Origin: a virus
Strand: one strand, 5' to 3'
Virus record (IMG/VR): IMGVR_UViG_3300028025_000859
Location: 1 to 32,894 of that record
DNA length: 32,894 nt
Shown one piece after another: positions 103 through 26,262 of this stretch. The stretch's first letter is position 1. Every line of letters starts with the position of its first letter. The position numbers and the translations under genes were made by a program. The notes under the pieces were generated by a model, which was not told where the DNA came from, ran no database searches, and saw only the letters and a program-made list of their open reading frames with translations.

Positions 103-3100
103 TTAATCTTCATATTTCTTAATGAAAGCTAATGTACGTTCATCTTCAGACTTCTCATAGATAGCTTTTGATTTATTAATATTACCTTTAGAACCTGTAG
201 CACCATACGTCATCTGACCAATACCTTCTTTACGGGCAGCAGTCATAAGCTTAGAAGCAGTATTGTTAACGTTGTTACTAAAGTTACGTACCCATGAATC
301 CAACCTGTTAGAAGGTCCACTGAGCTTTAACATTTCTTTTGATAACAAAGCAAGCTTCTTAAACTGGCTAGGTGTAACAGCAAGATGTTGTCTGATGTGT
401 TCTCCACCCATACTGTCTGTATCAGGTATAGATCCTGGTGCTCTCCAACCATTAGCCTCTGCTTCTTTGAGCATTTGACTAATACGTTGTTGATACTTTA
501 ACCATGATTCTTGAGAGTTATATTTACGATTTAAGAACAATTCTTTATAAGCACCATCATCTTGAATACGATCGTACTGCTCATCTAAGTAAGCACCAAG
601 AGCAGGATAGTCACCTTTATCTCCGATACCTACAGGACGTGCATTGTCTTTTACTCTGTTAAATTCTGTTTCTTCAGCATCTTTAATAACCTTAGCAAAT
701 TTATCTCCAAACTTAGCAATCTGTGGGATAGCTTGAGGAATAGAAATGTTGTTGTAAGCATTACGATAGATCAAAGAGCCACCAGCAGAAGAAATAATAG
801 AGTCGTGAACCCACAAAGCAGGTGTTGGCATCTTCTTATCTTTATTAACAAACAAAGTAGTAGCTTTAACTAAGTCACCATCAATAGATTGAATAGGCAT
901 AACAACCATTTGTCGAGCTTGGCTTGTACCAATAGCATTATTGAAGGCATCATACTTCTTAGTACGAGTATCAAAGAACATTTGAACACCCTTAGTAGCC
1001 GCAGGACTAGCACCCATCTGGGTTGACTCAATCTCTATAGACTGTCCAGCAGGATTAATAAAAGTATCTGTCTCATAAGACTTATACTTAACCATAACCG
1101 TTGAACCATCTTTAAGCTTAACAGGTAATACTTCTCCAGTACTATTTGCTTTATTAACAGGAGTTACTTCTACAGGGGTTAACAAGTAAGTATCACCAGT
1201 AATACCCGGCATCATAACAGTTGTATTAAGGATTGATGTATAACGACCAATGTCTTTAAGAACTTGTGTTGACTTAGAGTTAATTACTTCACGGAGTGTA
1301 GACTCAAGTGCATCATTAAGATCACTTGCGGCTTTCTCAAGGTCATTACTATAAGCAGGACTATTAAGAAGATACTCAGCAGCTTTATCTTGGAATGAGT
1401 CAGCAAGTAATTCAACCATCATCTCTTTAAACATTGATGCATCTTTACCATAAGCATTTTGCATCAGAGGTTTCTTAAAGAATTCTTTAGCAATCTCTGC
1501 TTTACCCATATCATCTTTAAGAGACTTAAAGAAGTTCATCCAAGATGAGTTAGCTTCAGGACGATCCTTAAGAATATGCTCAAGGTTAGCTACCATAGTG
1601 TTCATAGCGTATTCACGCATGTCATCTAAGGAAGGGTTAAATGTACCTAATCGTACAGCGTTATCTGGACTACCAAAGAACAATGCTTGCAGGAAAATAC
1701 CGTTTTGATTACCGTCATCAAATGAATGATGAGTTAATGGTACATGAATACGAGCAGTAGCAGGGTTATCAAGATTGGATTTCAAATTAAACATATCAGT
1801 CCATAGATTCTTAGCACCCATAGCTTCGCCCTTCTCCATACCAGCAAGAAGAGATTGAATATTATCTGTTGCATTTTCAGGATCAACTAAGAATTGTTCA
1901 AAGTCTTTACCTAATTCAGCAAGCTTGTTACCAATATTAACATTATATTTAGCAACAATATTTGCTGGAGCTTCTTTAACAATGTTAGGGTTAGAACCAT
2001 CAACAGCAGAGAAGAAATATATAACGCTATTCAGCATAGTACCAATAGCACCACGGTCTGAAGGGCTTAATGCTTCAAGAGCTTTATTCTGTTGTTCCCC
2101 AGGCATACGAAAGATTTTAACAGCTGTTTGTTTAAGTTGTTCTACTTTTTTATCATCAAATAACTTATCACCAGTGACATAGTCTTTAGATGCAAAGCTA
2201 ATCATATCTCGGATACCATTCTTAGAACCCATGTAGTCAGTATCATAACTGTTAGGGAAGAATCGTTGGTTAGCCAAGCTATGAATCCACTCTGAATAAC
2301 GAATACCCGGAGCGTTTTTAGCATTCATAATATCAAAGTTAAGAGTTGTAAGCTTATTATTAATTACTTCTGTTGCTTGTCTATCTTGTTGAGCTTCAAA
2401 CTGGCGAACATCATCTTGATTTGATGCATCAAAGTCTTTCTTAGGTTTAGTCTTTAACTTAGCTGCAATAAAATCTTTTTCACTGACACCATTACGTTTA
2501 GCCGCCCAATGATTACTAAACTTAATCCTACCTTGTTCATCTTTTTCTAGGTACTGTTCTGCTGTGATCAAACCAAACTCGACTTCTTTATATTGAACGT
2601 CTTTAGGATTGAACATTAAACCAATAGAACCAAGAATATCTTTAGTAGCTTCAGCCGCATCCATTACAAGACCGGGTTTACGTATAGACCTCTTAGTAAG
2701 TTGTTGTCGGTTAGCTGCAAATGAAGCACCACTACGATTAGGAGTAGTACTAGACTTACGTCTACTGTAGTCACCTACAAGGGCTTCTGATGCTATCTGC
2801 AAGTCACGAGCAATGTCTTTAAGGTCAGGACTCATTTGTACTACTGGACGATCGTTAATATGGAATACTTTAATAGTACCACGATCAATAGCATCTTGAA
2901 CAATAGCCTTAGACATAGCATTGATTGCTTTAGGTGATACCTTTTTGCCAATACGATTCAGACCATTAGTAGCGAAGTGTTTAACAGAATTAATAAAGTC
3001 AAGCATATAAGTTGCATCATCAATAGATGCTCCTGAGTCCGATATAACTCTACCAGTACCTTCTTTCTCACCCTTTTCTACTTTACCTTGTGTAGCAGAC

Positions 3101-3888
3101 TTAGCTAATGATACACCAAATACAAGACCAAAGTCAGCTAATTCTTCTGGGGAAGTAAAGCCATCTTCTGCTGCAGCTTTAAGACCAGCCGCAATAAGTA
3201 CTGGTGAACCATCAGCAGAAGCCATTTCACTTTTGATACGTGCATTAGAAGTAAACAATGCATCATTTGTTTGTGATACAATATTAGCTAGTGCTGTAGC
3301 AGTCTTATCTGAGTACCTATCAATCTCATCTTCAGACATATTTTGTTTAGACATCTGACGAGCACTGGCATTGAACATAGAGTCTTGTTGACCCTGTAGT
3401 AATGAAGCAGTAGCTACTTTAGACTGACCATAAGGATCAGCAGACATACCTTGCATGGCTTCCATAGTATTTAACTGGGAAGCCTTTTCCATTTCTAATT
3501 GAGCATTGTAGTCTGTTGGGGTAATAGTACGTAGCTTAGGTAAACCTGTTTCAGGATCAACAACAGGATTACCCATAGCATCCATTAAAGGTTCTTGTAC
3601 TTCACGAGCACCAAACCTAGAACGAGAAGCTATAGCAACATCCTCAGCAGTCCTGATAGGAGGTGCTTGCATAAGCATAGCTTCAGAAGAACCAGTAGGT
3701 TGTGGTACTTCTAAAGGCTGAGGCATATATTGTTCTACTTGTGCTTGCACTACCTTATTAGGATCTTCTACTGGTGCAGGTACTTGACCCATCATATCAG
3801 TAGAAACTCCTTGTAATGCAAGTAGTTGTTCAGCAGAGATGCCCGTTCTTGGCGAGCCTAAAGGTGCAACTTTAGTTTGAATAGCCAT
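103..3888 (-). CDS. Single-subunit (T7/N4-type) RNA polymerase-like protein, probably virion-packaged
   Basis: 1261 aa, last gene of the late operon. The core motifs of single-subunit RNA polymerases occur in the right order. Motif A is DDGNQNGI, with D725 in the place of T7 D537, and is followed by an Ala-Val-x-Leu stretch like that of T7. Motif B is KEFFKKPLMQNAYG: K801, K805, Y813 and G814 keep the T7 R627/K631/Y639/G640 spacing. Motif C is ALWVHDSI, with H1028 and D1029 in the place of T7 H811-D812. R542 in LANQRFFP may be the degenerate T/DxxGR site. Spacings A to B (88 residues) and B to C (216) are near those of T7 and the N4 virion polymerase. About 500 N-terminal and 230 C-terminal residues are unassigned. 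The start is set by an AGGAG overlapping the preceding gene's stop. Its place after large ejection-type genes suggests injection with the DNA to transcribe early genes; that role is inferred. Confidence 0.78.
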   Translation of the reverse strand: MAIQTKVAPLGSPRTGISAEQLLALQGVSTDMMGQVPAPVEDPNKVVQAQVEQYMPQPLEVPQPTGSSEAMLMQAPPIRTAEDVAIASRSRFGAREVQEPLMDAMGNPVVDPETGLPKLRTITPTDYNAQLEMEKASQLNTMEAMQGMSADPYGQSKVATASLLQGQQDSMFNASARQMSKQNMSEDEIDRYSDKTATALANIVSQTNDALFTSNARIKSEMASADGSPVLIAAGLKAAAEDGFTSPEELADFGLVFGVSLAKSATQGKVEKGEKEGTGRVISDSGASIDDATYMLDFINSVKHFATNGLNRIGKKVSPKAINAMSKAIVQDAIDRGTIKVFHINDRPVVQMSPDLKDIARDLQIASEALVGDYSRRKSSTTPNRSGASFAANRQQLTKRSIRKPGLVMDAAEATKDILGSIGLMFNPKDVQYKEVEFGLITAEQYLEKDEQGRIKFSNHWAAKRNGVSEKDFIAAKLKTKPKKDFDASNQDDVRQFEAQQDRQATEVINNKLTTLNFDIMNAKNAPGIRYSEWIHSLANQRFFPNSYDTDYMGSKNGIRDMISFASKDYVTGDKLFDDKKVEQLKQTAVKIFRMPGEQQNKALEALSPSDRGAIGTMLNSVIYFFSAVDGSNPNIVKEAPANIVAKYNVNIGNKLAELGKDFEQFLVDPENATDNIQSLLAGMEKGEAMGAKNLWTDMFNLKSNLDNPATARIHVPLTHHSFDDGNQNGIFLQALFFGSPDNAVRLGTFNPSLDDMREYAMNTMVANLEHILKDRPEANSSWMNFFKSLKDDMGKAEIAKEFFKKPLMQNAYGKDASMFKEMMVELLADSFQDKAAEYLLNSPAYSNDLEKAASDLNDALESTLREVINSKSTQVLKDIGRYTSILNTTVMMPGITGDTYLLTPVEVTPVNKANSTGEVLPVKLKDGSTVMVKYKSYETDTFINPAGQSIEIESTQMGASPAATKGVQMFFDTRTKKYDAFNNAIGTSQARQMVVMPIQSIDGDLVKATTLFVNKDKKMPTPALWVHDSIISSAGGSLIYRNAYNNISIPQAIPQIAKFGDKFAKVIKDAEETEFNRVKDNARPVGIGDKGDYPALGAYLDEQYDRIQDDGAYKELFLNRKYNSQESWLKYQQRISQMLKEAEANGWRAPGSIPDTDSMGGEHIRQHLAVTPSQFKKLALLSKEMLKLSGPSNRLDSWVRNFSNNVNNTASKLMTAARKEGIGQMTYGATGSKGNINKSKAIYEKSEDERTLAFIKKYED

Positions 3889-3892
3889 TTAT

Positions 3893-6800
3893 TTACTCCT
3901 TGAGAGATTCTTTAAGTTCTTTAGCCACAATAGGAAAGCTACCAATGACAGGTGTAGCACGAGCAAGCTGTGCAGCACCTCCAGCAGTATCGCCTTGGCT
4001 AATCATATAAGCACCACGAACAGGTTTATCTGCCCATGACACTACAGGTGAAATATCTTTTAATGTTTCATAAGACCACTTAGCAGGATTGTCCAGCACA
4101 GATGGTTTGTTTTGTGGGTAAAGAGGCATAATACCATCTACTACTCGTTCATATTGTCCTAACAATCCTGAACCATAAATAGTACGTTGTATATTAGCTA
4201 CATTACCTTTAATATATGGATTCTCTTCACCATAAGCCAGTTCATCTTTAATAGCATTAGCAATCATAGAGAACAAGATAGCCATAGCTACTACAGAGAA
4301 AGCTTGATAACGCATACCAACACTACCTTCCATAATATAATTACGGTACAGTCGTGGTAACACAGTACTATGTAGACCAGCCATAAAACGAGTCATAGCA
4401 GTAATCAAACGTAGACGTGGATCATGATAGTACTTAGGTAAATTATGTGGTTGTGGATTAACAATCTTACCATCAATCATATTACCAAGAGTAGTAAGAA
4501 TATTTTCTTGTAAGAATTTAGCATTAGAATCTAATGGAAATGTTTCTTGGGTTAAACTCTTTTCAGAAAAGAATTTATAAGGATCCAAGTTTTGAGATTC
4601 AATATTATCTAATATCTGTATAACACCCATAACATCCATACCAAACTCTTGTAATTCTTTTACGGCTTGTCCTTGTTGGTTAGTTAAATTAATACCAGTA
4701 GTAATAGCTTTAACTCTATCTTCTTGAGGAATAGCCCTTAAACTTTGTAGCTTAGTAACAACAGCATCAGAAGCAAATGACAAGGATGACATACGAATAG
4801 CGTCTGTAGTAGCCCTTAAACCAATCACAGCTGCAAACACTTGCATAGACTTTCTCATGTTACTATTAGGTAACTCAAACTTAGCTTGTGTATTGTATCC
4901 TGCTTCATTGTAACCTAAATGTTCAAACAATGAACGACCAAAAGACTTACGGAATAATTCTTCTACTTGAGAAGATATTTTAGCATACTCCTTAGTATGA
5001 TCTCCGGGTTTAGATTGTAAATCATTAAGTTTATTTTCAAGATCTGCTATTTGTTTACGAATAGTAGCATGAGGACTGTATCGAGCATAAGAAATACCTA
5101 ATTGAGCAGAGCTAAATGAGGCACCAGCATTAAGATCATTCTTTAATTCTTCTTTAAGAGTACTAAAGTAAAGAGCTAATTGAGATTTAACTTGATCACC
5201 ATTAGTTCCTAGTGTAGCCATAGCTGCTTCAGCTTGAGAGCTAATAGCCGCTTTGCCTAATGAAGCTAACATAGTTAAGGTAGTACCCCAACCAATAATC
5301 TTTTCTAGCTTAGGATACTTAGTTAACGGATTATAGTTACCAGTAATGATATCATACCAGTCTCTTACATTCTTAACGGTATCCATGTACTGCTGATCAT
5401 TTTCAAATTCATTATTGTCTTTAGCTTTTTGAAGTAACTTAGATAATACTGCACCATCTTTACCAAGGAATACCTCATTAGAAATTCGGTGAGCAACACT
5501 TTCTTTTAAATTCTCCATGCTGTTAAACAAGTTAGTTTCAAACACATGATTAAGATTAGGATCAGCAAACACACCATGCTGAGACATCCAGTCTCTAGCT
5601 GATTTAGCTAAGTCAACATCACCAGAAACAATATTGTTAACTGCTTCATTAGCTTGTCTACGATTACTACCATTACTTATCATTGTGCTTATAACAGCTT
5701 CACGATTAGCCATAAGAGTAGCAGGGTGAACTGAAGAAGATTCAAACAAAGGGTTAGATGAATCTAAGTCAGAGCTTGTTGTATTAAACCTGTCAGCCTC
5801 TGTCTTCATACGAATAAGAGTAGTGTCTAGGTTATCTTTCCAGTTTTGTAATTCAATATTTTGTGGTGAAGTTGCTGGTAATTTTTGACCTTTAGACCAT
5901 GTATTTTGCCAAGATTCTTTAACCATTGTGTTAGCTGTTGATACACTAGTTTTAAGGTTACTTGCTAATTCTTCAGCAGTATTACCAGCAAAGCTACCTT
6001 GTAAACGTTGTTTAAAGCCTGAGTAATTGTCTCCGGGCAAAATACCTTTACCACCAATAATTGATTTAAGATAAGCTAAGTTAGTCTTAAATGTACCATC
6101 TTCTTTGGTAATAGAAGGTATAGCAGTGTCAACAAGTTGTCTAACAAGTCGACCAGGATCTGTAATAATAGATTTGAAACCATTCCAAGCACCTTCTAAA
6201 GCAGGTAAACTTTTTAAGTCTGGTACTGGTTTGTTTATTGGTTCATCTTTAATAGCTCTAACCATACTAACAGTATTAGCATAAGCATTAGGGTCTTTTT
6301 CTCTTGCACGTAATACTTGATCATTATTAAATGACTGTTCAGAACTTAGCTCTCTATTAAACTTACTACGAGCATCTGACAATGATTGCCATTCAGCATT
6401 GTTCTTAAGTTGTCCTGCTGTACCAAACATAGCACCCATAGTACCACCACCAATAGCGGCATCCATAAGGTTCTGATAGAAGTTACGTTCATATTGGATA
6501 TCAGTATCCCATACACCAGTAGTAGCCATCATCTCAAGATATTGTTGAGCAGATTCTGTTAAGGCTTCTCCACCAGTAGATGTTGTTACTTTAGCAAGTC
6601 CACGTAGTGCGGCTTCAGTAGAAGCATATTGTTGTTTAGCTAATGCGGCACCAGCTTTAGACATATCTACTAATTCACGCTTAGTAGCTTGTTCAATTAA
6701 GTTCATGGCTTCTGATTGTGTACTTGCTTTACCTGATTTAATTAATATATCAGTGATTTCATCTCGACCCGCTTTAGTTAGCACATTACTGCTAATCATC

Positions 6801-8080
6801 ATACCTTCAAGACCTAGCCTATCAAGCACAGCAGAACCAATACCTAATGTAACAGCTAAGTTAGCATTCTTTTTATCATCAGGTTGATCCGCATAAAATC
6901 CACCAGCATAAGCTAATGAAGTAGGAACAGTAGATAAACCATAAGCTATTAATGCAGGTATATTTGCTCCACCAGTTGCAGCAGTAGAAGCCAGCATAAG
7001 AGCTAAGCTAGGTAATGTTCCTGCAATAAGGTTACCTGAGTATGTTGCTGTATCTTTAATAGCTGACCAAGGGTCGTTAGTTCTAATATCTTTAAATGAA
7101 GTTAATGTGTCTGCTAATTCTTCTTGCCCTGCTTTAGTAGAACGAACCATTGTTTGACCTTTATCAGACAACCATTCCCATTCAGACTTATCACCAGTCA
7201 TTTGTAGTAAACCACCAAGGCTCTTATACATATCAAGAGAAGCTCTATGAAGTGTAGTACTAAACTGATCATAAGCTTGATTCATCATAGTACGATCGCC
7301 ATGACGAACCATAACACCACCAACCATATCTGGTGTAGTAGCGGCTAAATATAAACGCTCTTTAGAGGTTTGTAACTGTTGTTGCAACTTATCCCTAGTT
7401 TCAGGTTTAAGCTGTTCAGTCTTAAGTATTCTTTCTATACGAGCAATTTCTTCTTGCTCTGCTTTAGCCGCAGGAATACCTGTAGAATTCTTAATTGCAG
7501 CATAAAGCTTTTCATCTTGTACATTTATTTTAGGTACATACAAGGGGTTACCACCAGCTTTAGCAATAGCTTCTTCTTTACGTTCACGAGCAAGTCGTAA
7601 CATAGGATCGGCATTTGTTAGCTCAGGCATTACCCTTGAGATAGCATTTAATGTAGCATTTCTTTGTACTGCTTCATCTGTACTGTGTAAGTTAGTCCTT
7701 TGCAGTCCTAGTGCTGTGAGTGTATCACCAAGTGACTCACCTAACTTATTAGTTTGTCGAGCTAATACTCGATTATAAGGGTCTCTACCCTCTGTTTCAA
7801 GATTAGTATATCCACCTAACTGTGCAATAGTATTTACATCCTCTTGAGATGTATCATTCTTTACTTGGTTAGGTACGAATATACCACCTTGTAACTTCGC
7901 TGTCTCAGGGGCATTAAATCCCCTAAGACGATATGAAGTGTTACCAACCTTAACCGTATCAGGATCAATTATTTTAACATTGGAATCTACAGGCTTACCA
8001 TCTATTGTGGTGACCGGAGACCCTGCAACGTTCTTATTAGCAAGTGCTAATGCTCGTGCGTCTTCTTCTAATGTGCTCAT
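3893..8080 (-). CDS. Large internal virion/ejection protein with N-terminal SNase-like nuclease domain
   Basis: 1395 aa. Residues about 33-130 match the staphylococcal nuclease fold: DPDTV (D41, equivalent of SNase D21), [10 protein letters not shown] (R51 for R35, E59 for E43) and RDPYNRVLA (R104 for R87). The Ca2+ ligand D40 is replaced by N56. After a helical, charged section come hydrophobic stretches at about 345-397 (including [16 protein letters not shown] and [14 protein letters not shown]), near 930 and near 1270. The C-terminal 200 residues ([44 protein letters not shown]) resemble the C-terminal part of large polyvalent/internal proteins of podoviruses. The likely role is an ejected protein that forms or lines a channel across the cell envelope, carrying a nuclease into the cell. 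It lies 18 bp after the 986-aa gene and 4 bp before the polymerase gene, with an AGAGGA ribosome site. The nuclease domain is well supported; its activity is uncertain. Confidence 0.75.
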
Positions 8081-8098: not shown

Positions 8099-11059
8099 TT
8101 AAATATTACCACCAGTTGTTTTTAACCAGTATAACATGGGTGTTGATCCAGACACGCCTTTAGACATGTCAGAAAACTTTTTCTTATCAGCAGTGCTTAA
8201 ACTGTTCCAACGCTTTTCGATTTGCTCGCTAGCTTGATCTAACGGAATACCTTGTTGCTTATATACATCTAGTGCATTACCTAAAGCAACTTGATATTCG
8301 GCAGAAGGTAATTGTAATTTTCCTTTATCACCTTTAGTTGCATAAAGATCACGACTACTTTCTTTCATACGAGTTTCAATAACAGCATTACCAAAGAAAG
8401 CTTTACGCAAACCTTCTTCTGTCAATGATGCATTACCTTTTGCCATAGCAAAATCAATAGCAGATGATACTGCGTTCTCAGACATTTTAGCAAAAGAAGT
8501 TGGTGAAATATTAGGACCTAAATCTTCTTTAAGTAACAACAAACTTTGTGTGTATTTATCAGCTTCAGCATTAGCATCATAACCTTTTTGCTTACCAAAA
8601 GCATTCTTAAGAGGAGATACTAAACGCTTAGTTGTTGCACTCTCCATCTCTTTACGATTTCTACTGTTGTCTTCTGCAGATTCAAAACGTTTTAAGTCTA
8701 ATGGGTTAATTGTTTCCCATTCACCTTTAGTATTTACTCTTTGAACTTCACCTTTAAAATTTCTAAATTGAATTGGCTTACCATCAAAGAATCCTTGAGA
8801 AACATTACCGGGCTTTGCCGCATCTTTATCTTCAACATTCTTATTAGATTTAAGAAGATTAATAACAGCACGTTGTTTAGCTTCGGTATCTGCTTGGCTG
8901 TACAATTCCATAGCTTGCTTACGAACATTTGCAGGAACATTTTCACCAAGAGCAGTGCGGTAATCACTGTCTAATCGTTCACGTAGTTCACGAGTGTTCT
9001 TAACAGACTCTGCACGAGCAGCAGCTTCAGTAGCTTGTCGTTTTTCAGCAGATTGCAATGTGTTTAGTCCAGCAAACTTAAGTGATCCACCAACAGAACC
9101 GCCTGTAAGCAGACCACCAGCGGCTAACAAAGAAAACTTAATTAGCTCTTGATCACCAAACAAACCTGATTTACCAAACAAACCAGATAAAGCTCTTTCA
9201 AGAAAGTTCTTTTGTTGAACTGGATCAGGAATTTTTTGTGCTTCTGCTTTAGCGGCTTCAACTTGAGGAGCAACTTGTTGAGAGTATTGAGCAAGCATTG
9301 TATTAAACTTTGGGTCATCTACCGGCTTATCATTAACTGTCATAACAGATTCTGGTTTAGGAATATCAGGAACAATATCAGGAACTGGTTGTGAAGCTTC
9401 TATTTGTTTATTAATCTTTTCAGGTAATACATTTGATCCAGTTACTTGACGAATACGCTCTTGGTTAGTCATTGTTCCTGTTGGAATTACTGGCTCTCCA
9501 TTACGAGTTATACGATTGATTTCTGAATAAGCCCACTTCTTATCGTTAGCTGTAATAGATGGATCATTAATAATTTCGCTTAATCTAATAAGATCTTGCT
9601 GATCTTTATTAAACAAAGGTGCTTCTTTTAAAGGAGGTACTTGAGTAGGTGTTGACCCCGAATCCATTATGTTATCACGAGCAAAAGAAAAACCAGAACG
9701 TTTAGCTGGAACTTGTGGAATAGACACAGGTACGGGTACTGCAACTTCAGCAACAGGCAATGTTCCAGCTTGTGCTGATGGGATAATATCTGTAGCTGTT
9801 TGTGCTAAAGACTTACCAGCTTTAGTTGCTTTTTCAGCAATAAACTTTTTAAAATCACCAGCTGTTTTACCAAAATATTTATTTTGTTTTAATTCATTTT
9901 CAGTAAAATGTTTAGCTAATAATTCATCATCTTTAGCCGCAATAGCTGATACACCTCGAGGACCAAATCCAGCAGCATAAAGATTTTCTACTGTTAAAGG
10001 TAAACCTTTTTTCTTAAGTTGTTTTGCATAATCATCATACTGAGTATCAGACAATTCTCTTTGGAATTCAGGTTTAAAATAAGCTTCAGAGTTATGTGCA
10101 ACACCCTGTAATTTAGGATTTATCTTTTGATACAAAGGTAATGTACCCACAGTAGTTCCTGTAAGGCTAGAAGCTGTTTGATTAAGTTGTGGGTTCTTTG
10201 CTTTAGGATCATTAGATGCTTCAGCAAAAGATCTCATCTTAAAAAAATCTTCTTTAGATACTTCATTAGGATTGTTTGAAGCTAACGGTGCAACAGGTTG
10301 TGTTGCAGGGATTTGCTGACCTCCTAAGAAATTAAGAAATCTGTCTACATAAGATACATTCTCAGTACCGTCATCATACCCTGCAGCAGACTGTACCTGT
10401 TGTGGTACTACACCATATGTACCATTAGAGTAATTAGCTTGAGCAGAAGAGCCACGGCTAAAGTCAAATACATTCATTGTGCCATGCATGAATGAAGATC
10501 CGGGTACGTCTGGATGCATGTATGCTAATGATGGAACACCGCTAGTACCGTCTGCATGATACTTAGCCTGTCCAGGAGCATCTGAATAACGTACATCTAC
10601 TGCACCGTCACGCATATTAGCCTTACGACCTTCTTGTACCATACGCCTAATAGCTTTTTTATTCTTAGGATCTTGTGCTGCAGCACGAGGAATAACAGCT
10701 TCTCCGGGAGTTAACATAGCAGGAACTGTATCAGTACCTTGTGCTTGGAATATAGGTTGTGGTAAATTACGTTGACCTTGTTTAAACATACCAGTGCCAG
10801 CTAAAGGATTTTGAGTTGGAATACCCAACTTCTGTTTGTTCATTTTAGGAGGAGGAATACCCATATCCTTAAGTTTAGCATTATTAACTTGTTCTTTATG
10901 ACCTAAACCTTGATTAGCTTTTGCAGCTGCTTCCTGAAGTTTAATCTCATGTAATTGTTGTTTACGACTTTCGTCAAGTCCCATCTTAGCCGCTTCACGG
11001 GCTTCTTTATTTTGAAACTTGAGGTACTCTCTTTGTTGTTTACCTGATAATGGTGCCAT
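8099..11059 (-). CDS. Large virion protein with LTPGE motif and possible lysozyme-like segment
   Basis: 986 aa. The N terminus is a charged, probably helical segment (1-65). VPAMLTPGEAVIPRAAAQ (112-129) is the LTPGE motif often seen in phage tape-measure and internal virion proteins. Four copies of a short G-T-x-x-V motif follow (about 168-235). Residues about 309-415 (with GLPLTVENLYAAGFGPRGV) resemble the C-terminal part of transglycosylase-like domains in phage virion proteins, but no clear catalytic glutamate site is seen, so it may be degenerate. A hydrophobic Ala/Gly/Leu stretch near 636-655 could insert in a membrane; the rest is Lys/Glu/Ala-rich and probably helical. It precedes the nuclease-fusion and polymerase genes and is probably the third large ejection protein, a counterpart by position of the T7 gp15/gp16 group. 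The start has an AAGGAA site. The exact function is not recognised. Confidence 0.6.
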   Translation of the reverse strand: MAPLSGKQQREYLKFQNKEAREAAKMGLDESRKQQLHEIKLQEAAAKANQGLGHKEQVNNAKLKDMGIPPPKMNKQKLGIPTQNPLAGTGMFKQGQRNLPQPIFQAQGTDTVPAMLTPGEAVIPRAAAQDPKNKKAIRRMVQEGRKANMRDGAVDVRYSDAPGQAKYHADGTSGVPSLAYMHPDVPGSSFMHGTMNVFDFSRGSSAQANYSNGTYGVVPQQVQSAAGYDDGTENVSYVDRFLNFLGGQQIPATQPVAPLASNNPNEVSKEDFFKMRSFAEASNDPKAKNPQLNQTASSLTGTTVGTLPLYQKINPKLQGVAHNSEAYFKPEFQRELSDTQYDDYAKQLKKKGLPLTVENLYAAGFGPRGVSAIAAKDDELLAKHFTENELKQNKYFGKTAGDFKKFIAEKATKAGKSLAQTATDIIPSAQAGTLPVAEVAVPVPVSIPQVPAKRSGFSFARDNIMDSGSTPTQVPPLKEAPLFNKDQQDLIRLSEIINDPSITANDKKWAYSEINRITRNGEPVIPTGTMTNQERIRQVTGSNVLPEKINKQIEASQPVPDIVPDIPKPESVMTVNDKPVDDPKFNTMLAQYSQQVAPQVEAAKAEAQKIPDPVQQKNFLERALSGLFGKSGLFGDQELIKFSLLAAGGLLTGGSVGGSLKFAGLNTLQSAEKRQATEAAARAESVKNTRELRERLDSDYRTALGENVPANVRKQAMELYSQADTEAKQRAVINLLKSNKNVEDKDAAKPGNVSQGFFDGKPIQFRNFKGEVQRVNTKGEWETINPLDLKRFESAEDNSRNRKEMESATTKRLVSPLKNAFGKQKGYDANAEADKYTQSLLLLKEDLGPNISPTSFAKMSENAVSSAIDFAMAKGNASLTEEGLRKAFFGNAVIETRMKESSRDLYATKGDKGKLQLPSAEYQVALGNALDVYKQQGIPLDQASEQIEKRWNSLSTADKKKFSDMSKGVSGSTPMLYWLKTTGGNI

Positions 11060-11068
11060 AGTATTTCC

Positions 11069-12016
11069 TTAAAATATTCCTAGCTTTTTAGCTAACAATG
11101 CTCCACCAATGACCATACCTACAGGTCCCATAGCGGCTAATGCGGCTTCACCACCAGCCATTGCTGCTCCCGATGCTCCTGCAGTTGTTGCGGCAGTAGC
11201 TCCAGCATTAGCAACAGTAGCGCCTGTTTGGGCAGCAGCTGATAGCGGTGCAGCAGTATAAGCTTTGTATGCTGTGTCAATTCCTTTAGTAGCGGCATCA
11301 ACACCTTTGCCCATTAACATAGAACCTAATTGTTGTTCTGTACGATCAGGCATACGACCCATAGCTTGCTCGTTAGATGGTCTGATCTCTGCGGCTAATG
11401 GTGCAGACACAGGTTGGGCATTAGCCCATGACCATGGATCATCATCAACACGCATGCTACCGTTGTAATAGCCGGGAACTGACATAGTACCGTTAGCCCA
11501 ACCGGGAGCATCACCTACCCCAACAGATCCACCAGCAGTACCGTCACTACTACCACCTTCACTTGGTGCAGATACGCCTTCAGAGATAGATGCGTCATCA
11601 ACCGCTAATCCAAGAGCATTTTCAGCAAGACCTTCTGCCGTAGCTCCTGTGTTACCAATAGCAGTTAAAGATACGTCAGGAATAGACAGATTAGCAGGTG
11701 CGGCTAACCCAGTAATACTGTTTACTGTGTTATTATCTGATACAGTATTACTATCAGAAGTTGTTCCACCATTATTTCCATCACCACCAGAGCTTCCACC
11801 GTCTGTTACAGTTGTATCTTTAGAAAGAGGTGCTACATAATCTTTTGTATAATTGTTTAAATACGTTTTACCATAAACAATAGGTGTGTTCATAGCAGTA
11901 GTTAATGGTCTACCCATAGCATCTACTGTTGTACCACCACCTTTTCCACCACTTGCTTGTTGAAGGGCGGCTTCTTTATTATAAGCATCTGCTGTTGCGC
12001 CTTGAATACCAGCCAT
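11069..12016 (-). CDS. Small Gly/Ala/Ser-rich virion-associated protein
   Basis: 315 aa, low complexity: a Gly/Ser/Asp/Asn/Thr-rich middle (about 70-175), then WANGTMSVPGYYNGSMRV, two copies of the G-[TS]-x-x-V motif that also occurs four times in the next protein. The C terminus is Ala/Gly-rich and hydrophobic (AMGPVGMVIGGALLAKKLGIF is the last 21 residues, given here only as its tail GALLAKKLGIF), a pattern common at the end of small phage core or ejection proteins that may touch the membrane. The start overlaps the previous stop in a TAATG junction, so translation is probably coupled. By position it could be a T7 gp14-like or P22 gp7/gp20-like small ejection protein. No enzymatic motif is seen, so the call rests mainly on context and composition. 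Confidence 0.45.
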   Translation of the reverse strand: MAGIQGATADAYNKEAALQQASGGKGGGTTVDAMGRPLTTAMNTPIVYGKTYLNNYTKDYVAPLSKDTTVTDGGSSGGDGNNGGTTSDSNTVSDNNTVNSITGLAAPANLSIPDVSLTAIGNTGATAEGLAENALGLAVDDASISEGVSAPSEGGSSDGTAGGSVGVGDAPGWANGTMSVPGYYNGSMRVDDDPWSWANAQPVSAPLAAEIRPSNEQAMGRMPDRTEQQLGSMLMGKGVDAATKGIDTAYKAYTAAPLSAAAQTGATVANAGATAATTAGASGAAMAGGEAALAAMGPVGMVIGGALLAKKLGIF

Positions 12017-12705
12017 TACTTACCTCCAGTCGCCTGTTGTCGTGCAGGATTACCATAAATAGTTGATGCATAACGTTGAAGACCTTGGAATGTAGCATCA
12101 AGACCTTGTTGATCAATATTTCGTTGTTGATTACCAAGGTTAGCAATACTAGATACCCCACCTGATGCAATACCAGAAGCTGTTTGAGCACCTGACTGTA
12201 ATGCAGACTCAGCGGCAAGACGATTCTTAAACATGTTAGACTCATAGTCAGCATCAACCTTAGCAAGCTGACCTGTAGTTTCAGCGTTCTGAGCGCCTTG
12301 CATAACAGCTTGTCGTGCTGATCCTAAAGTACCAGCTGAACCAAAGCCTGTATTTAATCCTGCTACTTTCTTTTGTGCATCTTGAACAATAGCTGCTTTA
12401 GTAGCGGCTAATGTTTCAGCACTAGGTGATGTTGCCATAGTAGACAATCTTTTATTTTGATCACCTAAAGAACTAAGAGCAGTAGAGGTAGTAGCACCAA
12501 GCATATTAGCACCTTCACCAAATGCTTTTTGTTGTAGTGTAGATGCACCAGCAACCTTACTTAACTCACCTGCACCATAAGATTGTTCAGCGGCATTACC
12601 AACATTTTTCATATACGGAGCAGCCCATTCAGGAATACTACTTACTGTATTGCCACCACCGCCACCGTAGTTCTTCTTAATAGAACCATTAATTTTATAT
12701 TTCAT
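12016..12705 (-). CDS. Probable internal virion (ejection) protein, Ala/Gly/Ser-rich
   Basis: 229 aa. A short basic N terminus with a poly-Gly tract (YGGGGGN) leads into IPEWAAPYMKNVGNAAEQSY, then a long Ala/Gly/Ser/Gln-rich stretch with probable amphipathic helices (AATKAAIVQDAQKKVAGL, then QAVMQGAQNAETTGQLAKVD). The opening 'glycines, then PEWAAPYMKNV' pattern is typical of small internal/ejection proteins of podoviruses from aquatic samples. It overlaps the GNAT-like gene at TAATG, and a ribosome site (AAAGGA) lies just upstream. It is followed by the 315-aa protein and the three large ejection-type proteins, which fits an internal core or tail-needle role. The function is inferred from context; no catalytic motif is visible. 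Confidence 0.45.
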   Translation of the reverse strand: MKYKINGSIKKNYGGGGGNTVSSIPEWAAPYMKNVGNAAEQSYGAGELSKVAGASTLQQKAFGEGANMLGATTSTALSSLGDQNKRLSTMATSPSAETLAATKAAIVQDAQKKVAGLNTGFGSAGTLGSARQAVMQGAQNAETTGQLAKVDADYESNMFKNRLAAESALQSGAQTASGIASGGVSSIANLGNQQRNIDQQGLDATFQGLQRYASTIYGNPARQQATGGK

Positions 12706-13121
12706 TATAAATCCTTTCGCATTACTACGTAAGCTTCTTTAAATCCGGGTACATACTTTGGTAGTACCTTTGCCCATCCTGGACGACCCCATTGTTCAAT
12801 GGCTTTACAACCAGAATCACGGGCAAACTGTTCTACAGTAGGAAAAACCTTAGACTGTTCTTCAAAGTTATCACCAGCAAAAGCAATAATATGAAGGGTT
12901 TTATGTTGTGAATATTGTAAGTACTGAGTTAAACCAGCACCAATAATATTTAAATCATTATCTACTAACGCCCAACATTGAACGTACTCATTAAGAATCT
13001 TTTTAAGATAGTCTGTTAATGTAGATTCTCCTTGTCCATGATCAATTACTTTCTGTAATAGTACAGAGAGTGTTGACCAATGTTGTACGGTTTGTTCAGG
13101 TGTTAGTAGAATGATTTTCAT
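12705..13121 (-). CDS. GNAT-fold acetyltransferase-like protein (T7 gp13-like position)
   Basis: 138 aa, the same length as T7 gp13. The layout suits a GNAT fold: an N-terminal helix pair, then beta strands (CWALVDNDLNIIGAGLTQYL, KTLHIIAFAGDN), a helix (FPTVEQFARDSGCKAIEQWG) and a C-terminal GRPGWAKVLPKYVPGFKEAYV, which matches the end of phage GNAT-like proteins found beside tail and ejection genes. The acetyl-CoA pyrophosphate loop (Q/R-x-x-G-x-G/A) is not obvious, so catalysis is doubtful and a structural or assembly role is possible. It overlaps the long fibre gene by 4 bp (ATGA) and the next gene by 1 bp. Confidence 0.6.
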   Translation of the reverse strand: MKIILLTPEQTVQHWSTLSVLLQKVIDHGQGESTLTDYLKKILNEYVQCWALVDNDLNIIGAGLTQYLQYSQHKTLHIIAFAGDNFEEQSKVFPTVEQFARDSGCKAIEQWGRPGWAKVLPKYVPGFKEAYVVMRKDL

Positions 13122-16100
13122 TTGTTTTCTAATTCGTTTATACGAGTTGTTAATTGATTTACTTTAATATTTAATTCTTGTACTGCTTTAGTTAATACAC
13201 TGATCAATCCAATGTAGTCAAGACTCTTAATACCGTTCTCATGTGTTTGATTAAGTGAATCATTAGTATCTGTAACAAGAAGTTGAACATCATCAGCTAA
13301 GAACCCGTGGAACTTAGTTGTTTGTTCAATATCGCTACGAGTAAATGTTACTGGTCTGAGCTTAGTTACAAAGTCTAATCCAAGGGCTTCATCTTGTATA
13401 TCATCTTTAAGACGTTTATCGGATACAGCCTGTAATGTTAATGTATTACCACTACCAAAGAAGTTGTATGTACCAACAAGACCTGTACCTGTTATGATAT
13501 TCATACCAGATCCAGCAGCATTAGCACCACCAAAGCCGGGGTTACCATTAAAGATACGACCCCATGATCCGGGTCCATAGCCACCTAATGCGGCAGAGTC
13601 TGCAGCTTGACCAGATGTACTTAATGGTGTATAACCTAAAGCACCTGTAACATTACCACTTGTAAGAGATAATGAACCACCAAGAGTTAAATTACCTGAT
13701 GTTGTAACAGTTCCACTAAGAGACAAACCAGACACAGTACCTGTACCACTTACACTAGTAACAGTTCCTGTACCACCAGTTGAAGGAGTTGACCAAGTAC
13801 CGTCACCACGTAAGAACGTAGATGAGCTTGGTGAACCACCATTCTCACCTAATGCGGCTCTAACTTCTGACATAGTTGCCCATGTACGAGCACCAGAAGC
13901 AGTAGCTAAAATACGGTTACCACTAGACGATACATTAGAAGCTAATGCAGTACTATTAAGCTGAGTAAAGTCTGTTAAAGAACTTACATAGGCTAATGCA
14001 CCAAGACCTAATGATGACTGCAGAGCAGACACTGTAGGTGTATTAAGTGTAAGGTTACCTGTAGACGTTACTGTACCAGTTAAAGAAAAACCTAAACCAG
14101 AGCCTGTTCCACTAACTGACGTAACACCACCTGAAGTTATAGAAGCCCATGTACCATCTTGTCTAAGATAACCAGTACCACCAGAAGTAGGAGCTGTAAT
14201 AGCCGCTGAACCCCAGTTAAATATTCCCCATGGAGCAACTGATGTACCTAAGTTCATCCTTGTTCCTGATGAAGCATTACCAGAGAAATTAGGACCGGGA
14301 GTTGTACCTGCTGTGCCTGCGTTAACTAATACACCAGCACTATAAGTACTTGTACCAGAATAACCAGCGGCAAGAACTATATTAGAAGCATTAGTAGCAA
14401 ATCCAGGAGATGTAATACCTGCTAGATTACTTGTAAACCTTGCGTTAGTAGCACCAGTCTCATTACTAAACAAATCAAAACCATTAATTGTAATATTGCT
14501 ATTACCATTAACAGCAGTACCATTAGCCGCATAGTAAGCTACTTGTCCTGAGTTACCTGTGTTAACAGTACCAGAACCAGAAACTACTGGAGGAGTAAAT
14601 GTAAGTACACCTGATGTGTTGTTGTATGCAAGAGCGCCTGAACCAAAGGCAGAAGCAGTTGTAACACTTAATGGGTGAACGTGATCACCACGAGCAAACT
14701 TAGTTGCTGAACCTGTAGCTGCTGTACCTGAAGCATTTGGTACTGTAGTGTAACCATAGTCTAAACCAGATAAATCTGTTAGTGTTGGAGTTTGTAAACC
14801 ACTCTCAAATCTATTAACAGAGTTTGTTGTGTATGCGTCTACTGCACTATCAAAAGCACAACCAGTTAAATCAATAGTACAGTTGGTATTAGCAATAGTT
14901 GGTCTAGCACCAGTTGGGGTATAGCCTCCTAAACCCTTAAATCCACATCCAGTAATAGCTACTTTAAAACCACTACCTGATGTTGCTTCAAGTTTAATAT
15001 TATTAGTAGCATAAGCAATAGGAGGAGTAGAACCAACACGGTTAAACGAACAACCTGTAATAGCATTACTTACTCCGGGCTTAGCAAATGTACTTGTTGC
15101 ATACAAGTCAGCAATACCTAAGTTACCTTCAAAGTAAACACCTGATAAGTTAAATCCAACAGAGGATTCAATAGCTGTATTACCTGATGGTTCTGCAATA
15201 CGTAGACCCCAGTTGTTAACGTCTCCTGTTGTTGTACCATTAACCTCAATAGCACCACCAATCATGTTGAACACACCGGGACCGTTTACAAAAATACCAT
15301 AAAGACTGTTAACACCAAACTCACAACCAAACATATTAATTGCATTAGGTGAAGTAGCATATTGACCTGATACAGGTATACGCTCAAACAATGCACCACG
15401 AAGATTAAACCTGAAAAAACAAGAATCAAAGTTAGATGTTAAAAAGTTAGCACCGTATACACCATAACCCCAGTTAGTAAAGAAACAAGATTTAAAATGA
15501 AAGAAAGCACCACCAGAAATAGATATTCCACGGCTGTTATCTCCTCCTGATCCTACAAAGGTTAAATTTTCAACCATAGTGTAAACATTAGGATTAACAA
15601 GGATAGGTGGAGTAGCGCTAGGATTACCTGTATTACAAGCTAATGATAAAGCAGTAGCTCCTGCTGTAGTTTGGTATATACTAGAAGCATTAATACCATC
15701 ACCTAAAAAGTGAACTCGAGCATAAGGGTCTGCATTAGCTGGTGATGTGTATGTTAACGAGCTGGTAATTCTATAAGTACCATTAGGGAAGTATACTACA
15801 CCACCTGTAATTGTAGCCGCATTAATAGCTGATTGAATAGCTGATGTATCGTCTGTGCTACCGTTACCTATTGCACCATAAGCTTTAACATTATATTGAT
15901 GCTCATAAGCAGTTACAGTAGACCAGACACCATCACCACGAAGAAAGTTAGTGTTAGTTGCTGTACCAGAACCTAAAGACGTTACAGGAATTTGACCACT
16001 ATAACCAAGAGCCAATGTACCATTAGCAGTTAATGGAGAGCCTGTTACAGAGAATCCTGTTGGAGCAGTTAAAACAATATTAGTAATACCACCAGACGCA

Positions 16101-18844
16101 CTTGTAACACCCCATGTACCGTTACCACGTAATACTTTATTTACGTCATTAGGAGGAGGTTGAACACGTACAACAGTAGAACCACCATAGATAGGATCTG
16201 TACCATTATTAAGAACACCTGTGTAAGCATTCATAGTAGCAGTATTAGTACCTGATGCTAAACCTACAGTAGCTCTTCTAAATGTTATAACAGTAGAATT
16301 TATTGTTCCAGAAGCAGTAACAGCCCATTTGTTTTCAATGTTAGAAGCAATAGCATCAGCAAGTTGTTGTGTTGTGTTTAGTAATTCTGAATCATACTCA
16401 AGATAAAAATTATAATTACTATTTTCTAAAGTTACATTAAATACTAATGAGCCTTCTGTTTCAAAATTAAACGAAGGCATTGTTATGCTAGCATAAGTAC
16501 CCGGAGTAACAACACCACTACTGTCTGAAGGTAAATCAAAACCTCGGAAATAACCAATACCTGATTTAGTTCCTGCTGTTCCTGATGTACCGGATACACC
16601 ATCAAAAGCGTAACCATTACCTGAGCCGCCAGCAAAAAAAGCCGCACCAGTACTTGAGCCATTAAGCGCCATAAACACTGGGTTAGTATGACCTGAACCT
16701 ACAACATCTACACGAAAAGCCGCATCAGGATTACTATTATTATTTAATGCACCGTAATAAAGTCTACCATTACCACTTGAAACAGCTGATAAACCATTAC
16801 CAGTACCACTAGTATTAGCAGTAAGACCTGAACCTGTGTTAGCAGAATAATCAAGCCAAATAGGGTTAGTTACACCAGCACCACCACTAATACCAATAAC
16901 AGCATTAGTAACGTCTGATCCACCACCACCACCCATAGTAAGAAACTTTGAATTAGCGGAGTCATATGCAGATATCCTGTTGTCTCGTACTGTTGTTGAT
17001 GGAGGCACAAGACTGTTAATCTCAATACGTTGACCTGTTGTTGCTGTTTTAAAACCTGAGGTTTGAATCTCACCAGCAGTTACTGTACCGATGTTAGCAG
17101 TAATAGCAGACAAAGCACTAACAGAAAGTTTACTTGCTGTAATTGTATTCTCTACAATAAGAGAACCAGTAATATAAGAAGTAAATAAAGTCCAACCAAC
17201 TGAAAAACGATATACAGCTGCTAAATTAAAATTATTATAACTAACTGTTGCAATATCTCCAGCTACTGGAGTGCGACCAATAGCGGCAAGTACTTCAGGG
17301 TTGGTAGGCTCTCCACCATCATTAGCTACACGAGTAATAACAAAAGTAGCTGAACCTGCACCACCAGTAGCACCATTAGCACCGTTATAAGCAATACCTC
17401 TAATAGGATTACTTACGTTAGTCCAGTCAAGAGTAGAAGATACAACAGTAGCCGCTTCATTTAATGGAACAGTAATACTCCATAAATAATATCCCGCAGT
17501 TGTTTCACTAGGAGCAGATGTGTACCAATCTGTAGGTGGTGTATAAGCTCCTGTAGCCCATGTATATGTAGACGTTGTTGTAGGTCTTGCTGGAGGAGTA
17601 GAGTTAGCTGTCCATCTGTATATTGATGGGAACGCAGACATAACCCCGTTAGCACCTGCTTGACCCGGAACACCATTGTATACTACAGGCATACTAATAG
17701 TTTTACTTAATGGGCTTGCAAGGTTAGAACCGTTAACTGTTAATGTAACATCTACTTTAGTTGCAGCAGATAATGGAGTAACTGTAATAGTACTCAAAGA
17801 ACCTGATGCAGGGGTGGCACCACTAACAGACCAGCTATATGTAGGACTTGTAACATTAGTTGTAAGGGCAGTTAATACAGCGTTAGGTGGTGTAAATGCA
17901 CCACTAGACGCTTGTACAAAAGAAGTATAACCAGATATATCTATTGATGGTCCACTTGTACCTGTTGCACCTTGTGTTCCTGGATCAGAAAACACTAATT
18001 GAAGACTTGCGACACTAGACTGAGTAACTACACCAGCACTATCTTTATAACGAATAGGTACTGAGATTGTAGCTGGACTTGATGCCATAGCAGAGGGTGC
18101 AGGGAACTGAGCGTATGAACCTGCGTCTGTAGGAGACCCCATTGTAATATTAGTATAGCTAATGTCTGCAAGACCTGTAGTTGAGCTTGCACCAATACGC
18201 CATGTATTGTTTGTAAATGCAGCGTCTGAGTCAGTTGTTGCTCCTGAATACTGTACAATAGTATTTTGGTTAGTAGCGTATACACGAGGTGTAACGTTAG
18301 TAAACACAGGAGCTAATGGGTTACCTGCTCTTGGTACCTGCATTGTAGCAGGAGTAAAGAAAGATAAGAATGTACTTGCACCAGCAGACACAGGAGCCGA
18401 AGTAACAATATCTAAATCAATAGATACTCCGGGTTCTTGTAACCAACTTGTAGCAGGTGCTGTAGTACTAACTGAGAAGTTGATCTTACGACCACCTACA
18501 GATAAATACCACAAGAACTTTGTTGTACCAAACCCACCAGTAACTTCAAACCAACGGTAGTCCGCAGGGTTATTTGACTCAACAGAAGAGTCTGAATTCT
18601 TTAAACCATAGTATAGTCTGTTGGTAGGCACATTAGATATGTTAGTACCAACATTATCATCAGCATACTTAACAGCAATATATTTATATAAGTATGCTAC
18701 AAGGTTACCAAATTGATCACTAATAACACCAGTAGTAAGATCAGCACTTAGACCATCAGAGCCGCCACCAGACGTTCCTTCAAGAACAAGTTGTGCTAAG
18801 AAAGCATCTAGCTCTTTGTCACCAGTAATAGGTGGATTAAACAT
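13118..18844 (-). CDS. Long tail fibre/tailspike with beta-helix and self-cleaving S74 chaperone
   Basis: 1908 aa from the chosen start. The N-terminal domain (KYIAVKYADDN, NPADYRWFEVTGGFGTTKF) is of a type seen in phage tip and fibre proteins. Ig-like and short collagen-like Gly repeats follow (near 395 and 490), then a lambda-J-like segment near 575 (NTITASKLSVSALSAI). Residues about 975-1350 are a pectate-lyase-type right-handed beta-helix beginning YNVKAYGAIGNGSTDDTSAI, typical of polysaccharide-binding or -degrading spikes. FARGDHVHP near 1385 is a common fibre motif. The C terminus is a peptidase-S74 chaperone: SDKRLKDDI has S1808 and K1813 in the dyad spacing of endosialidase S911/K916, so it should trimerise the fibre and cleave itself off before S1808. 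The end is a leucine-rich coiled coil. GGAGGT sits 3 bases before the Met at 18844; an earlier in-frame Met at 18874 lacks such a site. Confidence 0.85.
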   Translation of the reverse strand: MFNPPITGDKELDAFLAQLVLEGTSGGGSDGLSADLTTGVISDQFGNLVAYLYKYIAVKYADDNVGTNISNVPTNRLYYGLKNSDSSVESNNPADYRWFEVTGGFGTTKFLWYLSVGGRKINFSVSTTAPATSWLQEPGVSIDLDIVTSAPVSAGASTFLSFFTPATMQVPRAGNPLAPVFTNVTPRVYATNQNTIVQYSGATTDSDAAFTNNTWRIGASSTTGLADISYTNITMGSPTDAGSYAQFPAPSAMASSPATISVPIRYKDSAGVVTQSSVASLQLVFSDPGTQGATGTSGPSIDISGYTSFVQASSGAFTPPNAVLTALTTNVTSPTYSWSVSGATPASGSLSTITVTPLSAATKVDVTLTVNGSNLASPLSKTISMPVVYNGVPGQAGANGVMSAFPSIYRWTANSTPPARPTTTSTYTWATGAYTPPTDWYTSAPSETTAGYYLWSITVPLNEAATVVSSTLDWTNVSNPIRGIAYNGANGATGGAGSATFVITRVANDGGEPTNPEVLAAIGRTPVAGDIATVSYNNFNLAAVYRFSVGWTLFTSYITGSLIVENTITASKLSVSALSAITANIGTVTAGEIQTSGFKTATTGQRIEINSLVPPSTTVRDNRISAYDSANSKFLTMGGGGGSDVTNAVIGISGGAGVTNPIWLDYSANTGSGLTANTSGTGNGLSAVSSGNGRLYYGALNNNSNPDAAFRVDVVGSGHTNPVFMALNGSSTGAAFFAGGSGNGYAFDGVSGTSGTAGTKSGIGYFRGFDLPSDSSGVVTPGTYASITMPSFNFETEGSLVFNVTLENSNYNFYLEYDSELLNTTQQLADAIASNIENKWAVTASGTINSTVITFRRATVGLASGTNTATMNAYTGVLNNGTDPIYGGSTVVRVQPPPNDVNKVLRGNGTWGVTSASGGITNIVLTAPTGFSVTGSPLTANGTLALGYSGQIPVTSLGSGTATNTNFLRGDGVWSTVTAYEHQYNVKAYGAIGNGSTDDTSAIQSAINAATITGGVVYFPNGTYRITSSLTYTSPANADPYARVHFLGDGINASSIYQTTAGATALSLACNTGNPSATPPILVNPNVYTMVENLTFVGSGGDNSRGISISGGAFFHFKSCFFTNWGYGVYGANFLTSNFDSCFFRFNLRGALFERIPVSGQYATSPNAINMFGCEFGVNSLYGIFVNGPGVFNMIGGAIEVNGTTTGDVNNWGLRIAEPSGNTAIESSVGFNLSGVYFEGNLGIADLYATSTFAKPGVSNAITGCSFNRVGSTPPIAYATNNIKLEATSGSGFKVAITGCGFKGLGGYTPTGARPTIANTNCTIDLTGCAFDSAVDAYTTNSVNRFESGLQTPTLTDLSGLDYGYTTVPNASGTAATGSATKFARGDHVHPLSVTTASAFGSGALAYNNTSGVLTFTPPVVSGSGTVNTGNSGQVAYYAANGTAVNGNSNITINGFDLFSNETGATNARFTSNLAGITSPGFATNASNIVLAAGYSGTSTYSAGVLVNAGTAGTTPGPNFSGNASSGTRMNLGTSVAPWGIFNWGSAAITAPTSGGTGYLRQDGTWASITSGGVTSVSGTGSGLGFSLTGTVTSTGNLTLNTPTVSALQSSLGLGALAYVSSLTDFTQLNSTALASNVSSSGNRILATASGARTWATMSEVRAALGENGGSPSSSTFLRGDGTWSTPSTGGTGTVTSVSGTGTVSGLSLSGTVTTSGNLTLGGSLSLTSGNVTGALGYTPLSTSGQAADSAALGGYGPGSWGRIFNGNPGFGGANAAGSGMNIITGTGLVGTYNFFGSGNTLTLQAVSDKRLKDDIQDEALGLDFVTKLRPVTFTRSDIEQTTKFHGFLADDVQLLVTDTNDSLNQTHENGIKSLDYIGLISVLTKAVQELNIKVNQLTTRINELENK

Positions 18845-18845
18845 T

Positions 18846-23596: not shown

Positions 23597-23622
23597 GTAG
23601 CCTCCTTGAATTTAATTTTCAT
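23593..23622 (-). CDS. Possible 9-codon leader ORF coupled to the adhesin gene
   Basis: Between the 333-aa and 401-aa genes, an AAAAGGA site precedes an ATG, 9 codons (MKIKFKEAT) and a TGA that overlaps the 401-aa start as ATGA. The ribosome site of the 401-aa gene (AAGGAGG) lies inside this mini-ORF. It may be a coupling minicistron or simply an accident of an AT-rich spacer. No protein function is claimed. Confidence 0.25.
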   Translation of the reverse strand: MKIKFKEAT

Positions 23623-23633
23623 ATTATTTCCTT

Positions 23634-24635: not shown

Positions 24636-24644
24636 ATTGTCTCC

Positions 24645-25144: not shown

Positions 25145-25164
25145 GTTAAATTTGTTCCTTAATA

Positions 25165-26253: not shown

Positions 26254-26262
26254 GTTATGTCC

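What the first reader, a model, noticed from the sequence alone, without database searches (positions are those of the whole stretch)
3893..8080. Staphylococcal-nuclease-like domain fused to the N terminus of a large ejection protein
Residues about 33-130 keep D41, R51, E59 and R104 in the order and spacing of SNase D21, R35, E43 and R87, inside the family signature R-L-x-G-x-x-x-P-E. The rest of the protein (hydrophobic stretches near 345-397, 930 and 1270, and a C-terminal part like those of podovirus internal proteins) looks like a DNA-ejection protein. A nuclease delivered with the genome could degrade host nucleic acid at entry or break up barriers outside the cell. SNase enzymes need Ca2+, which is high in the periplasm and medium and low in the cytoplasm, giving a natural way to limit activity to one place and spare the packaged genome. 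This fusion is not one I recognise.
Basis: partly seen in the sequence, partly recalled or inferred. Interest (0 to 1): 0.78.

Follow-up and report, generated by a model that had tools for sequence, protein, structure and literature searches.

The report
Nuclease domain on phage ejection protein
A group of uncultured phages, with one cultured marine relative, carries a staphylococcal-nuclease-type domain with an intact set of catalytic residues at the front of the large protein that such phages probably inject ahead of their DNA, where phage T7 carries a cell-wall-cutting enzyme; this would be a nuclease packed next to the genome and delivered at entry.

Summary
Residues ~33-130 of the 1395-aa protein (3893-8080, minus strand) are a genuine SNase-family domain. 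A 26-member profile hits S. aureus nuclease in the PDB at E=1.5e-9, and the AlphaFold model matches only SNase. In 32 distinct homologues, sampled without selecting on the N-terminus, the only invariant positions in the domain are D39, D41, T42, R51, E59 and R104 (SNase D19, D21, T22, R35, E43, R87). The Ca2+ ligand D40 is Asn in 25 and Asp in 7.

The rest is ejection-protein-like. Residues 588-1361 align collinearly with T7 gp16 (profile score 51-57; controls at most 27), hydrophobic segments fall in similar places, and the gene before it carries a lysozyme or transglycosylase domain in many relatives. A cultured podovirus, Roseobacter phage CRP-7 (gp34, 'hypothetical'), has the same protein.

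So the wall-cutting N-terminal domain of gp16 is here replaced by a nuclease. Catalysis, virion location, Ca2+ gating and substrate are inferred, not shown. One precedent for SNase on a phage entry protein exists (BtI1 hub protein, PMC2147016). The next gene resembles a single-subunit RNA polymerase.

The parts
3893..8080 (-). 1395-aa protein: SNase domain fused to a T7-gp16-type ejection protein
7691..7984 (-). SNase-family domain, residues 33-130; invariant D39, D41, T42, R51, E59, R104
6809..7030 (-). hydrophobic segments, residues 351-424 (candidate inner-membrane part; T7 gp16 has them at 330-412)
3998..6319 (-). residues 588-1361, collinear with T7 gp16 558-1266
   Evidence: controls: reversed, shuffled,
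5243..5299 (-). hydrophobic segment, residues 928-946
4250..4306 (-). hydrophobic segment, residues 1259-1277
8099..11059 (-). 986-aa neighbour in the ejection cassette; many orthologues carry an SLT/transglycosylase, pesticin-type lysozyme or gp16-type endolysin domain, not detected in this copy
12016..12705 (-). 229-aa protein, weak hit to phage DNA ejection protein (phrog_4287, E=1.8e-4)
103..3888 (-). 1261-aa neighbour at the end of the cassette, with single-subunit RNA polymerase-like motifs (candidate virion RNAP)

Best explanation
The protein is a T7-gp16-type internal (ejection) protein of a podovirus-like phage in which the N-terminal wall-cutting enzyme domain of gp16 has been replaced by a catalytically competent SNase-family nuclease; wall cutting sits in the neighbouring upstream ejection gene in many relatives. 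SHOWN by computation: homology and fold of the SNase domain, invariance of the catalytic residues, fixed fusion in all homologues whose N-terminus is on the contig, collinear similarity to T7 gp16, muralytic neighbour gene. INFERRED: it is packed in the capsid core, leaves ahead of the DNA, and, as modelled for gp16-N, its N-terminus ends up on the periplasmic side while the hydrophobic segments enter the inner membrane and the C-terminal part handles the incoming DNA. There, millimolar Ca2+ (seawater, periplasm) would switch it on, while low Ca2+ in the producing cytoplasm would keep it from cutting the phage genome. Most likely job: clearing nucleic acid at the entry site, either extracellular or periplasmic DNA/RNA or the DNA of a competing phage.
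For: SNase identity. Catalytic set invariant in 32 sequences with median pairwise identity 29%, found by C-terminal patterns or whole-protein similarity, so not selected on the N-terminus. dN/dS about 0.05-0.07 in the domain between close relatives. gp16 link: hhalign score 57 and 51 in the local rerun, 588-1361 against 558-1266, versus at most 27 for 15 shuffles and two reversals and 23 for the neighbour family; hydrophobic segments in similar places; a distant homologue's C-terminal part matches a KPP25 'virion structural protein', E=9e-6. Muralytic neighbour: phrog_342 'internal virion protein with endolysin domain' 2.3e-10 and transglycosylase 1.3e-14, Pesticin PF16754 above its cut-off in CRP-7. 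gp16-N in the periplasm: PMC8954989.
Against: No activity or virion proteomics data. SNase Ca2+ ligand D40 is Asn in the window and 25 of 32 relatives (Asp in 7), which may weaken Ca2+ binding, though a plasmid thermonuclease, L075, also has Asn there. The C-terminal model (pLDDT 67) found no clear PDB relative. The AF2 model of the domain is of moderate confidence (mean pLDDT 75.6), with the loop 59-74 starting at the catalytic E59 below 50. No result separates periplasmic from cytoplasmic action.
Confidence: 0.7

Rival explanations
1. The nuclease is active but works in the host cytoplasm on the host chromosome or on RNA early in infection (shut-off, nucleotide supply).
For: SNase enzymes cut both DNA and RNA (established knowledge); ejected phage proteins do reach the cytoplasm (polyvalent proteins, PMC5512222).
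Against: The domain is N-terminal of the hydrophobic segments, the place that in T7 gp16 stays periplasmic (PMC8954989); cytoplasmic Ca2+ is low; it would also threaten the phage's own DNA.
Confidence: 0.2
2. The domain is a catalytically dead OB fold that binds DNA or plugs the ejection channel.
For: Asn at the Ca2+ ligand D40 in most members; OB folds commonly bind nucleic acid.
Against: The only invariant positions in 32 diverse homologues are the metal and catalytic residues, including the R35, E43 and R87 equivalents that a binding fold would not need.
Confidence: 0.15
3. The nuclease acts on the phage's own DNA, for example nicking or trimming at packaging or as ejection starts.
For: Ejection proteins share space with packaged DNA in P22 (PMC8402733).
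Against: SNase enzymes are non-specific, so self-cutting would need tight control; nothing in the sequence points to site specificity.
Confidence: 0.08
4. The protein is a late non-virion protein (not ejected) with a nuclease domain.
For: No virion proteomics for this family.
Against: Position at the end of the structural module next to a gene of the T7 gp16/endolysin family, collinear similarity to gp16, KPP25 structural protein link.
Confidence: 0.07

Closest known systems
T7 gp16 (internal virion protein D)
   Same: Large ejection protein, N-terminal enzyme domain, hydrophobic segments near 330-420 and in the last 200 residues, collinear C-terminal two thirds.
   Different: Enzyme is SNase, not lytic transglycosylase; overall sequence similarity only visible by profiles.
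Roseobacter phage CRP-7 gp34 (MK613349, hypothetical protein)
   Same: Full-length homologue in a cultured podovirus, same SNase residues, same gene neighbourhood.
   Different: 23% identical overall; SNase D40 kept as Asp; upstream gene has a pesticin-type lysozyme domain.
BtI1 baseplate-hub protein (homologue of phage 0305phi8-36 gp147)
   Same: SNase-related domain at the N-terminus of a phage entry protein, where its relative has a transglycosylase (PMC2147016).
   Different: Baseplate hub in a prophage-like element of a Gram-positive host; not an internal ejection protein; sequence not compared here.
Staphylococcal nuclease / bacterial thermonucleases (PF00565)
   Same: Fold and catalytic residues.
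   Different: Free-standing enzymes; here a domain of a 1400-aa phage protein, D40 often Asn, too divergent for the Pfam model.
Polyvalent proteins of phages and conjugative elements
   Same: Large multi-domain proteins thought to be delivered with DNA, some with nucleases (PMC5512222).
   Different: The words SNase, staphylococcal and thermonuclease do not occur in that survey's main text.
KPP25 ORF088 / phiR18 gp01 virion structural protein
   Same: Distant C-terminal similarity, podovirus.
   Different: No SNase domain found in it.

Membership tests
SNase (PF00565) superfamily | OB-type barrel with SNase order of strands and helices | tested here: met
   AF2 model and Foldseek/VIA: all listed PDB matches are SNase, Z up to 7.3
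SNase (PF00565) superfamily | Statistically significant sequence relationship | tested here: met
   Profile searches E=1.5e-9 and hhalign 97.5%; single-sequence Pfam scan fails
SNase (PF00565) superfamily | Catalytic D21, R35, E43, R87 | tested here: met
   Invariant in 32 of 32
SNase (PF00565) superfamily | Ca2+ ligand Asp at position 40 (feature of S. aureus SNase; variable in the superfamily) | tested here: not met
   Asn in the window protein and in 25 of 32, Asp in 7; Asn also in annotated thermonuclease L075, so not strictly defining for the superfamily
SNase (PF00565) superfamily | Metal-dependent nuclease activity | not testable with these tools
   needs purified protein
T7 gp16-type ejection proteins | Homologous C-terminal DNA-translocation part | tested here: met
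   Collinear profile match with controls; hhalign probability itself only 48-71%
T7 gp16-type ejection proteins | N-terminal lytic transglycosylase (T7-specific; known to move between ejection proteins) | tested here: not met
   SNase is there instead; a muralytic domain lies in the upstream gene of many relatives; such swaps are described in PMC8954989
T7 gp16-type ejection proteins | Present in the capsid core and ejected | not testable with these tools
   gene position and homology only
T7 gp16-type ejection proteins | Fold of the C-terminal part matches solved gp16 | tested here: inconclusive
   all-helical model of moderate confidence, no clear match

The most novel reading that the evidence does not exclude
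An active, metal-gated, non-specific nuclease is a constitutive part of the DNA ejectosome of a whole lineage of podoviruses: packed against the genome, harmless in the low-Ca2+ cytoplasm of the producing cell, switched on in the envelope of the next host, and used there to clear competing nucleic acid before the phage genome passes.
Probability: 0.4. Interest if true: 0.82.

Novelty: new variant of a known kind. Interest (0 to 1): 0.64.

Why it matters
Podovirus ejection proteins are known to carry wall-cutting enzymes; a nuclease in that position raises the question of how a phage packs a DNA-cutting enzyme with its own genome and what it needs to cut at entry. The domain is more constant in this lineage than the detectable wall-cutting domain, and a cultured member (CRP-7) makes the question testable now.

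Tried and rejected
Single-sequence Pfam, PHROG and PDB searches of the protein and its N-terminus: nothing for SNase. tblastn of the N-terminus in 50,697 phage records: none. The first homologue set was partly keyed to the NAPETAK motif itself, so conservation was re-measured on loci fetched by C-terminal patterns. L040 first looked like a member without the domain; it has it with a GTG start. Bacterial genome contigs: no relative. PDB searches with the C-terminal profile and model: no informative match. Phage GBSV1 nuclease as a precedent: its paper reports no homology to known nucleases. A search with the 26-member domain alignment in IMG/VR could not be run, too little conserved in a row. 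Literature searches for an ejected or virion-associated SNase found only the BtI1 remark; papers outside the open library were not searched.

Full report
OBSERVATION. The ORF at 3893-8080 (minus strand) is a single uninterrupted 1395-aa frame. Pfam, PHROG and PDB searches with this protein or its N-terminus alone give no SNase hit. Relatives were therefore fetched from IMG/VR. A search with the protein alone gave five close relatives; a search with an alignment including Roseobacter phage CRP-7 gp34 gave 23 loci, but one of its search patterns was the SNase motif itself. A third search used only the last 430 residues (alignment A4) and gave 41 loci; their N-termini are not selected by any N-terminal pattern.

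SNase IDENTITY. A profile of 18 N-termini hits S. aureus nuclease as the top PDB matches, E=2.9e-7; with 26 N-termini E=1.5e-9. Profile-profile comparison with six annotated plasmid thermonucleases: 97.5% probability, E=5.4e-12 for that one comparison. In the reverse direction, an HMM of the phage domain run over 3651 ORFs of all loci in hand finds the ejection proteins, those six thermonucleases and nothing else; the T7, N4, KPP25 and phiR18 loci give no hit. The AlphaFold model (mean pLDDT 75.6) has the SNase order of elements, and every listed PDB match is SNase (Foldseek prob up to 0.97, E about 0.01; VIA Z up to 7.3). The best viral match is a 1368-residue protein, the length of CRP-7 gp34.

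ACTIVE SITE. In 32 distinct proteins (30 from the C-terminal search, the window, CRP-7) with median pairwise identity 29% over the N-terminal region, the only invariant positions between residues 33 and 130 are D39, D41, T42, R51, E59 and R104, the equivalents of SNase D19, D21, T22, R35, E43 and R87. The position of the Ca2+ ligand D40 is Asn in 25 and Asp in 7, nothing else; Asn is also found there in one plasmid thermonuclease, L075. SNase Y85 is Tyr in 27 of 32. Between close relatives the domain is under purifying selection, dN/dS about 0.05-0.07. The one apparent exception, L040, has the domain with a GTG start. Four loci are cut by a contig end before the domain and say nothing.

THE REST OF THE PROTEIN. 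The hydrophobic stretches reported are present and shared by the family. T7 gp16 has hydrophobic peaks starting at 330, 355 and 394 and between 1137 and 1270; the window protein at 351-424 and 1259. Profile-profile comparison with seven gp16 proteins gives a collinear match, score 57, probability 71%; a local rerun gave score 51, probability 48%, covering 588-1361 against 558-1266, while 15 column shuffles and two reversals of the alignments score at most 27 and the neighbouring 1261-aa family scores 23. The homology is thus likely, though the hhalign probability alone would not carry it. A C-terminal stretch of the distant homologue L062 matches the KPP25 virion structural protein ORF088, E=9e-6; no SNase was found in the KPP25/phiR18 protein. 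The C-terminal AF2 model is all-helical, pLDDT 67, without an informative PDB match.

NEIGHBOURS. The gene directly upstream carries a muralytic domain in many relatives: phrog_342 'internal virion protein with endolysin domain' (L062, L065, L045), transglycosylase phrog_4067 (L036, L035, L014) and Pesticin PF16754 in CRP-7 gp35. In the window copy no such domain was detected. In CRP-7 the three large genes lie at the end of the structural module after terminase, portal, capsid and tail genes. CRP-7 is described as a podovirus of Rhodobacteraceae strain FZCC0042; the paper's main text does not use the word nuclease (PMC6918029).

MECHANISM. In T7, gp16 residues 1-156 (transglycosylase) stay on the periplasmic side while C-terminal parts enter the membrane and cytoplasm (PMC8954989). 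By analogy the SNase domain would be exposed in the periplasm or at the cell surface. That SNase needs Ca2+ is established knowledge; that Ca2+ limits it to the envelope is inference, weakened by Asn at position 40. Substrate and benefit are inference.

COMPARISON AND NOVELTY. Swapping of enzyme domains between ejection proteins is known (PMC8954989), and one SNase-bearing entry protein was noted in 2007, the BtI1 hub protein, whose authors wrote that the reason was not obvious (PMC2147016). An SNase on an internal ejection protein, fixed across a diverse lineage, was not found in the papers searched. I file it as a new variant of a known kind. In the membership table the one SNase feature not met is Asp at position 40; since that position also varies in an annotated thermonuclease, I read the domain as an SNase-superfamily member with a modified metal site rather than a canonical SNase. 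For gp16 the feature not met is the N-terminal transglycosylase, so the protein is called gp16-type in its C-terminal two thirds, not a gp16.

Noticed in passing
window 103-3888 (-), 1261 aa; CRP-7 gp33 (L006:15964-19671): Motifs in the order and approximate spacing of T7/N4 single-subunit RNA polymerases: DDGNQNGI (motif A, D725 invariant), K...KPLM...AYGK (motif B, Y813 invariant), IQS.DGDL and HDS (motif C, H1028/D1029 invariant); 10 of 11 members match a loose A-B-C pattern, 0 of 2000 shuffles. Pfam, PHROG, PDB and hhalign are not significant. Candidate virion RNA polymerase in the ejection cassette of a non-N4 phage; CRP-7 also has a separate T7-like RNA polymerase, gp30.
   Followed up: partly
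window 8099-11059 and its orthologues: The upstream ejection gene varies in its detectable wall-cutting domain (SLT, pesticin-type, gp16-type endolysin, or none detected), while the SNase domain downstream never changes.
   Followed up: partly
window 13118-18874 (-), 1918 aa: Tail-spike-like protein with a pectate-lyase-like domain (PF12708, 1.4e-18) and a C-terminal endosialidase-type chaperone, peptidase S74 (PF13884, 8e-6).
   Followed up: no
window 22391-27294 (-): Four genes of 333-401 aa (22391-23596, 23634-24635, 25165-26253, 26263-27294) hit the same family, phrog_2295: an apparent local expansion of one family among the tail genes.
   Followed up: no
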